Assembly: GCF_007859935.1 (NCBI RefSeq)
Contig: NZ_SJPO01000007.1
Span: 62,001-126,000, forward strand
Direction of reading: 5' to 3'
From: Posidoniimonas polymericola
Lineage (GTDB): Bacteria; Planctomycetota; Planctomycetia; Pirellulales; Lacipirellulaceae
Length of the DNA stretch: 64,000 bases
The position numbers were made by a program, and so were the translations under genes. Shown here piece by piece: positions 61,398 to 64,000 of this stretch. Numbering within the stretch: the stretch's first letter is position 1; the number at the start of each line of letters is the position of its first letter. The notes below the pieces were generated by a model. That model saw only the letters and a program-made list of their open reading frames with translations, searched no databases and was not told the origin of the DNA.

Positions 61398-62225
61398 TCA
61401 CTCGGTGTGCTTCCAGCCGGCCGCCTCTTCGCCGTCGAGCCGCAGTGTGAGGCACTTCGCGCTGCCGCCCGCCTTAACGAATTCGCCCAGCGGGGTGGCG
61501 ATCGCCGTGTAGCCGTGCGCGCGGAGGTTCTCGTGCAGCTTTGGGCAGCCGGCGTTGGTCACCACCGTCTTGCCGACGACCACCGCGTTGCACGCGAACG
61601 ACCGGGCCTCGTCCTCGGCGACCGGGATCAGCGTGCCGATGTTCGCCTCCAGCACCTTCTGGCCGTACTCGTCAAACGCGCCGGGAAAGTAGATCGCCTG
61701 GTCCTCGGCCAACGGGCAGAAGCAGGTGTCGAGGTGGTAGTAGTACGGGTCGGCTAGCTCCAGCGGCAGCACCCGCACGCCGAGCACCTCTCCAATCTTC
61801 TGGTGCCCGCCGGCGTCGCTCCGCATGCGGTAGCCGGCGTAGAGTGTGTCGCCACAGAACAGCGCATCGCCGGCGCCCTCGAAGCTCAGCTCCGCGGGCG
61901 GGTCGAACACCTCAAAGCCATCGCCCTCGAGCCAGGCGCGGTCGAGCGGCGTCTCGCCCTGCCGCTGCGGGTGCTTGAACCGGGCCACGATCGCCTGCCG
62001 CCGGTAGACCATCGCCGCATTGGCGGTGAACACCAGGTCGGGCAGCCCTTTGACCGGCGTCATCACCTCGATCGATGCCCCGGCCAACTCGAGCGCCGCC
62101 CGCAGCGCGTCCCACTGCTCGCCGGCCAGCGTGTGGTCGGCCTGCCGCTCGGTGCTCATCCACGGGTTGATCTCGTACTCGATGCCGTAGAACAGCGGCG
62201 GGCACATGAGGATGCGGGCGCCCAT
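61398..62225 (-). CDS. Arginine dihydrolase-like guanidino-group hydrolase (AgrE/ArgZ N-domain type)
   Basis: ATG 62225 follows AAGAGG; a TTG 16 codons earlier is less likely. The 275-residue protein has the pentein (amidinotransferase) fold with all catalytic positions: D63 and N69 in LPDLVFTANA, E116 in FEGAGD, H164 in YYYHLDTCF and nucleophile C258 in GGSAKCLTL. The start ARILMCPPLFYGIEYEINPW is typical of the group that includes cyanobacterial AgrE/ArgZ, which turns arginine into ornithine, CO2 and ammonia; dimethylarginase is the main alternative. A LOR/SDH-type ornithine cyclodeaminase, fused in AgrE, lies one gene away here on the same strand, which supports the dihydrolase reading. 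Confidence 0.8.
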   Translation of the reverse strand: MGARILMCPPLFYGIEYEINPWMSTERQADHTLAGEQWDALRAALELAGASIEVMTPVKGLPDLVFTANAAMVYRRQAIVARFKHPQRQGETPLDRAWLEGDGFEVFDPPAELSFEGAGDALFCGDTLYAGYRMRSDAGGHQKIGEVLGVRVLPLELADPYYYHLDTCFCPLAEDQAIYFPGAFDEYGQKVLEANIGTLIPVAEDEARSFACNAVVVGKTVVTNAGCPKLHENLRAHGYTAIATPLGEFVKAGGSAKCLTLRLDGEEAAGWKHTE

Positions 62226-62464
62226 AGGAACCGGCCTCTTGGGGTGTGTGTTGCCAAGTTTCACCGGCGCCAACAGATGGCGGATCGCACCGGCTTTGAG
62301 TGGTTCGCGGAGAATTGCATACTGAGTGGGCCTGCGGTGCTTGAGAGTTCAGTTACCGACCGCTAGGATCCGGCTACCCGCCTCTTCGCAGTTATTAGGA
62401 CCGCCGGAGTGGCCGTGTTGGTTCGGAACCGGACTATTCCTACGTACCTGAGCGAGAGAGCCTA

Positions 62465-63103
62465 ATGCAGCCTGTAGAATCTCGGATCGTCATGATTGTC
62501 GCAATCGTGGTTTGCCTGCTCGCGCCGGAGGCGAACTCCGCAACGGTGACCGATCTGGTTGGGGACAAGGACGGCTTTGGCGTTCCGGGGGCGCCGGCGA
62601 CGCCGGCCGATGGCGTGCTGTGGCGTGACGACTTGGGGGGAATCTTCTTTACTGACTACCGGGACGCCGACGACTTGGCCGACGCGCCTTTCACGGACAT
62701 TTGGCAGGCCCCGGGCAGCGTAAGCTACTCGCACAGCTACGCGTTAGGGGGCATGCAGGCGTTGCAAGCGACGCTCCAGCTGCAGATCGCAGGAATCGCT
62801 GATGTCGACGGTCCTTATCAGGTCTCGGTTAATTCGATTGTTATTGGTCAGATTGATGCGAACGCTGCGGCCAACGCGTTTCAAGAAGTCAAGCTGTACT
62901 CATTCAACATACCGGTTGCGTTGATCAACGGGAGTGACGCGATCGAAGTGAGCGCTTCTCAGGGCGACGGCAACATCTTCAATTTCTCTGAGTTGATAGT
63001 CCGAACCGTTCCTGAGCCTACTGCGTTGGCCTTATCTGCGTTGGTGCTGGGGAGCTACGGAGTCGCGACGCGGCGGCGAATTGAATTCCGACGGTCTGCC
63101 TAG
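62465..63103 (+). CDS. Small PEP-CTERM secreted protein
   Basis: This 212-residue protein follows GAGCGAGAGAGCC and starts with a signal peptide (IVMIVAIVVCLLAPEANSAT). The body is a beta-rich domain (DIWQAPGSVSYSHSYALGGM, LQLQIAGIADVDGPYQVSVN) that may be a carbohydrate- or calcium-binding jelly roll. It ends with the PEP-CTERM tail VPEPTALALSALVLGSYGVA plus TRRR. It is less GC-rich than most neighbours and is inserted, on the opposite strand, between the two arginine-degradation genes. No specific function is visible. Confidence 0.8.
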   Translation: MQPVESRIVMIVAIVVCLLAPEANSATVTDLVGDKDGFGVPGAPATPADGVLWRDDLGGIFFTDYRDADDLADAPFTDIWQAPGSVSYSHSYALGGMQALQATLQLQIAGIADVDGPYQVSVNSIVIGQIDANAAANAFQEVKLYSFNIPVALINGSDAIEVSASQGDGNIFNFSELIVRTVPEPTALALSALVLGSYGVATRRRIEFRRSA

Positions 63104-63146
63104 GACTGTGCAGCCGCATCGGTCAATGAAATGGTGAGGCGTGCGC

Positions 63147-64000
63147 TCACTGCCCACTCGTTTTCCATACTTCCTCGACCAGCGACCGCAAGAACGGCTC
63201 GACGTCGGTCACCAGGCCGACCGTCTGGAAGCTGCCGCGGTCGCTCAGCTTAATGACGGTCGACGGGTTGATGTCGACGCACACCACTTTGACCCACGCC
63301 GGCAGCAGGTTGCCGACCGCGATCGAGTGCAGCGTGGTGGCGATCATTAGGCAGAACGTGACGTCGCGGACCGCTTCGCGCATCTGACGCTGGGCGTCGA
63401 GCACGTCAGTGATGACGTCGGGCAGGGGGCCGTCGTCGCGGATGCTGCCGGCCAGCAGGAACTCCACGTTGTTCTTCACGCAGTCGTGCATCACTCCCGA
63501 GGTGATCAGGCCCTGGTCGACGGCCGCGGCGATCGAGCCCACCCGGCGGATCCGGTTGATGGCCCGCAGGTGGTGCTCGTGGCCCGCCTCGGCGATGCGG
63601 GCGTCGTCGAGGTGCACGCCGAGGCTGGTGCCGAACATCGCCTGCTCGATGTCGTGGGTCGCCAGGGCGTTGCCGGCGAACAGCTTGTGCACGTAGCCGC
63701 CGCGGATCAGCTCCGACAGCAGCGGGCCGCTGCCGGTGTGCACAATCGCTGGCCCGCCGACGATCAGCGTCTTGCCGCCGCCGGCTTGGTTGTCACGCAG
63801 CAGCTCAGCGATCTGGCGTACCTGGCCAGCCTTCGGTTTCTCGGTCGACACGGCGCTGTTCATGAACGCGAACGCGTGCTCGCCGGCGTCGCCCCGGTCG
63901 GGCGGGAAGACCCGCACGCCGGCGTGGCCGACGATCACCTTGTCGCCAACATTGACTTCGGACATCGGCACGCACCGCGGGCGGTCGTCCTTGCCGACGA
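63147..64000 (-). CDS. LOR/SDH-type ornithine cyclodeaminase (TIGR00300-like), partial
   Basis: The frame stays open to the window edge (VGKDDRPRCVPMSEVNVGDK), so the N-terminal LOR/SDH-like domain is outside; about 284 codons are visible. Conserved blocks are VGHAGVRVFPPD, FAFMNSAVSTEKPK, VGGPAIVHTG, GNALATHDIEQAMFGTSLGV, AGSIRDDGPLPDVITDVLDA, LHSIAVGNLLPAWVKVVCVD and INPSTVIKLSDRGS. In this family the NAD-dependent domain converts ornithine to proline and ammonia, and in cyanobacterial AgrE it is fused to arginine dihydrolase. It faces the PEP-CTERM gene convergently, with a 43-base gap. Confidence 0.85.
   Translation of the reverse strand, partial: VGKDDRPRCVPMSEVNVGDKVIVGHAGVRVFPPDRGDAGEHAFAFMNSAVSTEKPKAGQVRQIAELLRDNQAGGGKTLIVGGPAIVHTGSGPLLSELIRGGYVHKLFAGNALATHDIEQAMFGTSLGVHLDDARIAEAGHEHHLRAINRIRRVGSIAAAVDQGLITSGVMHDCVKNNVEFLLAGSIRDDGPLPDVITDVLDAQRQMREAVRDVTFCLMIATTLHSIAVGNLLPAWVKVVCVDINPSTVIKLSDRGSFQTVGLVTDVEPFLRSLVEEVWKTSGQ

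What the first reader, a model, noticed from the sequence alone, without database searches (positions are those of the whole stretch)
61398..64000. Separately encoded halves of the AgrE/ArgZ arginine-degradation enzyme
In cyanobacteria arginine dihydrolase and LOR/SDH-type ornithine cyclodeaminase are one protein (AgrE). Here the pentein enzyme (all catalytic residues present) and the TIGR00300-like gene are separate same-strand genes, with a PEP-CTERM gene inserted between them on the other strand. Together they would convert arginine to proline and ammonia.
Basis: partly seen in the sequence, partly recalled or inferred. Interest (0 to 1): 0.55.

Follow-up and report, generated by a model that had tools for sequence, protein, structure and literature searches.

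The report
Two-gene version of cyanobacterial arginine degradation
A planctomycete carries, as two neighbouring genes, relatives of the two enzymes that cyanobacteria fuse into one protein to turn arginine into proline and ammonia; this two-gene arrangement turns out to be common in its relatives and also appears in other phyla.

Summary
Window 61398-62273(-) encodes a pentein enzyme whose best solved relatives are the arginine dihydrolase (ADH) domains of AgrE/ArgZ (245 bits, against 55 for DDAH). Window 63147-64000(-) is the 3' part of a TIGR00300 ornithine cyclodeaminase (OCD) gene that runs about 406 bases past the window. A PEP-CTERM-type gene lies between them on the other strand. The seven ArgZ/AgrE active-site positions checked are all kept.
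The split is no local oddity. Of 196 genomes sampled in the order, 79 have the ADH, 82 the OCD, 78 both. Of 58 with both on one contig, 53 are adjacent on one strand, OCD first, the reverse of the fused ADH-OCD order; 2 are fused. The window's gap is the widest of the 53. The pair also occurs in contigs titled Nitrospirae, Deltaproteobacteria, Chloroflexi and Verrucomicrobia. The fused proteins form one branch with AgrE/ArgZ.
Two leads: all 54 TIGR00300 genomes in the phylum sample carry LarC, fitting NCBIfam's label 'nickel-pincer nucleotide-dependent'; and four genomes have only the ~75-residue PF04455 domain of the OCD, tied to the ADH.
Activities are inferred, not shown.

The parts
61398..62273 (-). 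Arginine dihydrolase-like pentein (291 aa from TTG; ATG at 62225 possible), counterpart of the N-terminal domain of ArgZ/AgrE
   Evidence: PDB 6lrf 245 and 6juy 235 bits vs DDAH 3rhy 55 bits; NF052232 273.6 bits, below its cut-off of 450; active-site residues kept
62465..63103 (+). PEP-CTERM-type secreted protein gene lying between the two enzyme genes; not part of the pathway; not seen in the gap of the same-genus genome G357
   Evidence: sequence; PepA 31.8 bits, below cut-off; G357 gap
63147..64000 (-). 3' part of the TIGR00300 / ArgZ-like C-terminal ornithine cyclodeaminase gene; whole gene is L002:5147-6406 (window-equivalent 63147-64406), 419 aa: PF04455, PF21571, PF21570
   Evidence: TIGR00300 524 bits; Pfam PF21570 337, PF04455 105, PF21571 101 bits; PDB 6juy, 6lrf, 3c2q about 350 bits each

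Best explanation
A two-gene arginine-to-proline catabolic unit. The ADH (a Cys-His pentein hydrolase) removes the guanidino carbon and both terminal nitrogens of arginine, giving ornithine, CO2 and two ammonia; the TIGR00300 enzyme then closes ornithine to proline, releasing a third ammonia. Together they do in two proteins what cyanobacterial AgrE/ArgZ does in one. Shown here: homology, conserved active-site residues, co-inheritance, conserved OCD-then-ADH gene order in relatives. Inferred: the activities, the substrate, co-transcription (doubtful in this genome because of the opposite-strand gene between) and use of a nickel-pincer nucleotide cofactor by the OCD.
For: ADH aligns over its length with AgrE/ArgZ and keeps N22, N71, R90, E118, D122, H168, C264; two DDAH-like controls, L176 and L177, whose best NCBIfam models are dimethylargininases (180 and 182 bits, below cut-off), have Asp at the 71 site. 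OCD 524 bits to TIGR00300, over cut-off. Order: 78 of 79 ADH genomes also have the OCD (Fisher p 1e-48, kinship ignored); 53 of 58 same-contig pairs are adjacent, one strand, OCD first, median gap 82 bases between matches. Phylum: all 13 genomes with ADH over 240 bits have TIGR00300. Pairwise identities of ADH and OCD over 45 selected genomes correlate, r = 0.90 (shared descent alone also gives this). Known chemistry: AgrE makes proline from arginine with one CO2 and three NH4+ (PMC8262935, passages); archaeal MMP_1218 reported to make proline from ornithine (PMC10809761, passages), and its relative 3c2q matches at 349 bits (that 3c2q is MMP_1218 is recalled).
Against: The ADH is below NCBI's curated cut-off for arginine dihydrolase (273.6 of 450 bits), as are all matches in both samples, fused ones included. 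It scores nearly as well on the dimethylargininase model NF045659, named for M. tuberculosis (254.9 bits, cut-off 300). Asn at site 71 is also found in 10 of 15 weaker relatives of unknown activity, so that residue alone does not settle the substrate. In this genome the two genes are 873 bases apart with an opposite-strand gene between. Nothing was assayed.
Confidence: 0.87

Rival explanations
1. The pentein is a dimethylarginine hydrolase (DDAH) making citrulline from methylated arginine; the neighbouring cyclodeaminase is unrelated to it.
For: Pfam's only hit at E 0.001 is DDAH_eukar (48 bits) and NF045659 'dimethylargininase' scores 254.9 bits.
Against: AgrE and ArgZ score 245 and 235 bits against 55 for the best DDAH in the PDB; the DDAH-like proteins L176 and L177 have Asp where this one has Asn; citrulline would not feed the co-inherited ornithine enzyme (78 of 79 genomes); the NF045659 cut-off of 300 is not met.
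Confidence: 0.06
2. The pentein is an arginine deiminase-like or agmatine-acting enzyme, and the TIGR00300 protein mainly makes proline for biosynthesis from ornithine of the arginine pathway.
For: TIGR00300 occurs without an ADH over 240 bits in 41 of 54 carriers in the phylum sample and without the ADH in 4 of 82 in the order, so the OCD can work without it.
Against: No arginine deiminase or agmatine deiminase family reached E 0.001 for the window protein; in these samples the ADH is almost never found without the OCD (1 of 79 in the order, 0 of 13 in the phylum).
Confidence: 0.05
3. The arrangement is AgrE broken in two by insertion of the PEP-CTERM gene.
For: The intervening gene is not in the gap of the same-genus genome G357, so a gene came in here or was lost there.
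Against: Order is OCD-ADH, the reverse of AgrE; in the order 53 of 58 same-contig pairs are two separate adjacent genes; the fused proteins form a separate branch (100/98 in the ADH tree; 100 in the OCD tree).
Confidence: 0.02

Closest known systems
AgrE (Anabaena Alr4995) / ArgZ (Synechocystis Sll1336), bifunctional arginine dihydrolase-ornithine cyclodeaminase
   Same: Both domains, with the active-site residues of the ADH domain
   Different: Two proteins instead of one; gene order OCD then ADH; outside the fused branch in both trees
Archaeal-type ornithine cyclodeaminase TIGR00300 (MMP_1218, MJ1480)
   Same: Over the family cut-off with the three Pfam domains of the ArgZ C-terminal half; PDB 3c2q 349 bits
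   Different: Here paired with an arginine dihydrolase-like gene
M. tuberculosis Rv2323c (annotated dimethylarginine dimethylaminohydrolase, needed for growth on arginine; PMC4569260, passages)
   Same: Single-domain relative, if NF045659, which is named for M. tuberculosis, is its model (254.9 bits; the link is inferred from the name)
   Different: Below that model's cut-off; Rv2323c lies in a cluster with rocD and rocE (PMC4569260, passages)

Membership tests
TIGR00300 ornithine cyclodeaminase | Full-length match over NCBIfam cut-off 410.8 | tested here: met
   524 bits, profile 4-404 of 407
TIGR00300 ornithine cyclodeaminase | Makes proline from ornithine | not testable with these tools
   needs assay
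TIGR00300 ornithine cyclodeaminase | Nickel-pincer nucleotide dependence (NCBIfam label) | tested here: inconclusive
   LarB, LarC and LarE over cut-off in the genome; LarC in 54 of 54 TIGR00300 genomes vs 133 of 192 others; but the genome also has one weak LarA-type match, and cofactor use itself cannot be tested
Arginine dihydrolase NF052232 | Score over curated cut-off 450 | tested here: not met
   273.6 bits; 0 of 246 and 0 of 196 genomes reach it, fused proteins included
Arginine dihydrolase NF052232 | ArgZ/AgrE active-site residues N22, N71, R90, E118, D122, H168, C264 (roles recalled; primary papers not held) | tested here: met
Arginine dihydrolase NF052232 | Arginine to ornithine, CO2 and two ammonia | not testable with these tools
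   needs assay
Bifunctional ArgZ/AgrE NF052231 | ADH and OCD in one polypeptide | tested here: not met
   separate genes 873 bases apart with an opposite-strand gene between
Dimethylargininase (DDAH) NF045659 / NF045660 / NF045658 | Score over cut-offs 300 / 340 / 450 | tested here: not met
   254.9 / 77.6 / 58.2 bits

The most novel reading that the evidence does not exclude
The two-gene OCD-ADH unit is the broader and perhaps older form of the pathway, of which cyanobacterial AgrE is one derived fusion; its OCD is one of the non-LarA nickel-pincer nucleotide enzymes that have been looked for; and the PF04455 domain at the start of the OCD is really a partner (docking or regulatory) module of the arginine dihydrolase, which some bacteria keep as a stand-alone 75-79-residue protein, or fused to the ADH, after losing or never having the cyclodeaminase.
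Probability: 0.3. Interest if true: 0.62.

Novelty: new variant of a known kind. Interest (0 to 1): 0.45.

Why it matters
It extends the arginine dihydrolase pathway, known from the cyanobacterial fusion, to a two-gene form common in Planctomycetota and found in contigs titled as four other phyla, in proteins that score below NCBI's cut-offs for both arginine dihydrolase and dimethylargininase. It offers single-function proteins for testing the chemistry, adds planctomycete co-occurrence evidence that TIGR00300 enzymes may need the nickel-pincer nucleotide, and points to PF04455 as a possible partner of the dihydrolase.

Tried and rejected
DDAH reading: rejected on scores, the residue at site 71 and the co-inherited partner. 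AgrE split by insertion: rejected. Promoters and terminators: the pattern scan of L002:3300-6800 found about what shuffles give (1 promoter-like vs mean 0.5; 2 terminator-like vs mean 2.1), so co-transcription is undecided. GSU2086-family proteins: two weak TIGR00300 matches (profile about 180-258), L196 and L197, score 363 and 290 bits on NF052581 (cut-off 250); 31 phylum genomes with weak TIGR00300 matches only were set aside, and of these two (G042, G198) were checked. LarC cannot be tied to the OCD alone: 58 of 101 genomes with neither Lar_N nor TIGR00300 still have LarC, and of the 14 named control genomes two (Synechococcus elongatus, Corynebacterium glutamicum) ring for LarC but for neither of the others. 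LarB and LarE were looked for in the window's genome only. Literature: searches for ornithine cyclodeaminase together with nickel-pincer nucleotide, or with NPN and nickel, gave no paper, and none of the listed papers showed both, so the basis of the NCBIfam label was not seen. The ArgZ/AgrE listings (titles and abstracts) showed no paper on separate genes, but most subscription papers are not held; [quoted passage not shown] Structure prediction was not run, because solved relatives cover the domains.

Rows dropped before counts: order, ADH 82 to 79 genomes (G316, G328, G408 weak only) and OCD 86 to 82 (G307, G326, G331, G436 weak only); phylum, TIGR00300 85 to 54 (31 weak only), ADH 74 to 13 (kept: over 240 bits; the next has 214.5). 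Contig-end fragments were kept, down to 30.7 bits for one ADH (G302). Two of the 20 'different contig' pairs (G284, G332) also show an ADH fragment beside the OCD. Fisher tests ignore kinship.

Full report
What is there. The window is G000:C7:62001-126000 of a 6.26-Mb assembly, 97% complete. On the minus strand, 61398-62273 encodes a 291-residue pentein-type enzyme and 63147-64000 the 3' part of a second gene that is complete in the assembly (L002:5147-6406, 419 residues from the ATG chosen here). The two are 873 bases apart. Between them, on the plus strand, 62465-63103 encodes a 212-residue protein with a signal-like start and a VPEP-hydrophobic-RRR end; its only family match is PepA at 31.8 bits, under the cut-off of 80. 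Beyond the first enzyme lie DUF6666 (354 bits) and adenine deaminase genes.

First enzyme. In the PDB the best matches are AgrE 6lrf (245 bits) and ArgZ (6jv0 239, 6juy 235 bits); the best DDAH has 55 bits. NCBIfam gives Arg_dihydro 273.6 bits (cut-off 450) and dimethylargininase NF045659 254.9 (cut-off 300); neither cut-off is met. In an alignment numbered on AgrE the window has N22, N71, R90, E118, D122, H168 and C264. Of 154 rows scoring over 240 bits on my ADH profile (several are the same gene held in two loci; two are PDB rows), N22 is kept in 153 (one gap), N71 in 152 (one Ser, one gap) and C264 in 152 (two gaps). Among 15 weaker relatives, 10 have Asn and 5 Asp at site 71; the two DDAH-like controls, L176 and L177 (best NCBIfam models dimethylargininases at 180 and 182 bits, below cut-off), have Asp. 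The roles of these residues are recalled; the two structure papers are not held.

Second enzyme. TIGR00300 524 bits, cut-off 410.8; Pfam shows PF04455, PF21571 and PF21570, in the same order as in a fused planctomycete protein. NCBIfam's name for TIGR00300 is 'ornithine cyclodeaminase, nickel-pincer nucleotide-dependent'.

Context in the order. In 196 genomes drawn from the order, 79 hold the ADH and 82 the OCD (fragments included), 78 both, 1 ADH only (G312, a 231-residue frame), 4 OCD only. Of the 78, 58 have both on one contig: 53 adjacent on one strand with the OCD first (23-948 bases between matches, median 82), 2 fused ADH-OCD (G400 of the window's own family, G371), 2 far apart, 1 on opposite strands; 20 lie on different contigs. 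The window's 948 is the widest of the 53. In the same-genus genome G357 the flanking genes are the same (DUF6666, 328 bits; and a gene starting MSDQNKSNWD), the distance between matches is 570, and the gap holds a different frame: 163 residues, same strand as the enzymes, its ATG overlapping the OCD stop, no Pfam match. So separation itself is usual; the PEP-CTERM-type gene was not seen in the one congener checked.

Context in the phylum. In 246 genomes, 13 have an ADH over 240 bits and all 13 have TIGR00300 (54 carriers in all). Two of the 13 are fused (G077, G220); G105, G145 and the window are adjacent OCD-first pairs; of the other 8, five have the genes far apart on one contig and three on different contigs.

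Other phyla. 42 of 80 have an OCD upstream on the same strand (one at 1,977 bases): 26 with planctomycete titles, 5 Verrucomicrobia/Spartobacteria, 4 Nitrospirae/Thermodesulfovibrionia, 3 Chloroflexi/Dehalococcoidia, 2 Deltaproteobacteria, 2 only 'bacterium' (titles; nearly all are metagenome bins and titles may be wrong). One has the OCD on the other strand, four have the reduced form below, and 33 have no OCD in the locus (some are cut by contig ends); of these 33, 26 have one over cut-off elsewhere in the genome and 7 do not.

A reduced form. Four loci have only the first ~75 residues of the OCD, most of the PF04455 domain: as a separate gene directly before the ADH in L150 (Verrucomicrobia, 79 residues), L153 and L156 (Gastranaerophilales, 75 residues each), with 1, 12 and 1 bases between its stop and the next ATG, and fused in front of the ADH in L158 (Vampirovibrionales, 385 residues). 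In each of the four genomes this was the only TIGR00300 match (completeness of these bins unknown). A solved structure covers the domain (MJ1480 3mgj, E 5e-15).

Trees. ADH, 67 chosen rows: the six fused proteins (four planctomycete, AgrE, ArgZ) are one branch (100/98), next to the two Gastranaerophilales proteins (97/87) and, less surely, the Vampirovibrionales one (91/59). All planctomycete separate ADHs in the tree but one (L025, G145) are one branch of 32 (99/96). Of the 10 rows used as outgroup one, L173, on a very long branch, fell inside, so the root is not firm. OCD, 45 rows, quick method, midpoint root: fused ones again one branch (100). Pairwise identities of the two proteins correlate (r = 0.90, 990 pairs). 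This fits one origin of the fused form and transfer between planctomycetes and cyanobacteria; which state came first is not settled.

Cofactor. The genome has LarB, LarC and LarE over cut-off and one weak LarA-type match (E 1.7e-7). In the phylum sample LarC is present in 54 of 54 TIGR00300 genomes and 133 of 192 others; among genomes without a Lar_N match, in 32 of 32 against 58 of 101 (Fisher p 5e-7, kinship ignored). In the order it is 80 of 82 against 65 of 114; the two misses are G392 and G420, 86 and 87% complete. Of the 14 named control genomes, the two with TIGR00300 (Methanocaldococcus jannaschii, Haloferax volcanii) have LarC and no Lar_N match; Synechococcus elongatus and Corynebacterium glutamicum have LarC with neither. 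A 2024 paper says about 15% of the genomes analysed have larB, larE and larC without larA, and that most cyanobacteria likely use the cofactor in a yet unidentified protein unlike LarA; it shows that the Synechocystis 6803 genes make the cofactor (PMC11796402, passages and section 17). Synechocystis carries ArgZ, so TIGR00300 is a fitting candidate, but the 58 genomes with neither family mean that LarC has other uses as well.

How it most likely works. Arginine to ornithine, CO2 and two ammonia by the first enzyme, ornithine to proline and ammonia by the second, as stated for AgrE in PMC8262935 (passages). Homology, residues, co-inheritance and gene order are shown; activity, regulation and cofactor are inferred.

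Verdict. Observation confirmed, pathway reading supported. The parts are known; the two-gene, reversed-order form and its spread are the variant.

Noticed in passing
L150:5751-5987, L153:4973-5197, L156:3539-3763, L158:5668-6822: Stand-alone PF04455 (LOR/SDH conserved region) genes of 75-79 codons directly before an arginine dihydrolase gene, and one PF04455-ADH fusion, in four genomes with no other TIGR00300 match: the domain seems to travel with the dihydrolase.
   Followed up: partly
246 Planctomycetota genomes: 58 of 101 genomes with neither a Lar_N match nor TIGR00300 still carry LarC, so other nickel-pincer nucleotide users, or other uses of LarC, remain to be found.
   Followed up: no
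L196:915-1880, L197:1110-2291: GSU2086-family proteins share a short stretch of the TIGR00300 Rossmann domain (profile about 185-252); two of the weak TIGR00300 matches in the phylum were identified as this family.
   Followed up: partly
L066:5867-6358(-), same-genus genome G357: The gap between the same two genes holds a 163-residue open frame without Pfam match whose ATG overlaps the OCD stop, where the window has the PEP-CTERM-type gene on the other strand.
   Followed up: partly
G400:C485:3587-5659 and G371:C97:10217-12268: AgrE-like ADH-OCD fusions in the window's own family and order that group with cyanobacterial AgrE/ArgZ and not with the separate genes of their kin: possibly transferred.
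   Followed up: partly
NCBIfam NF052232 and NF045659: Arg_dihydro's cut-off (450 bits) is reached in none of 246 and 196 genomes, AgrE-like fusions included, and the window protein scores almost as well on a dimethylargininase model, so such genes may go unnamed or be misnamed.
   Followed up: partly
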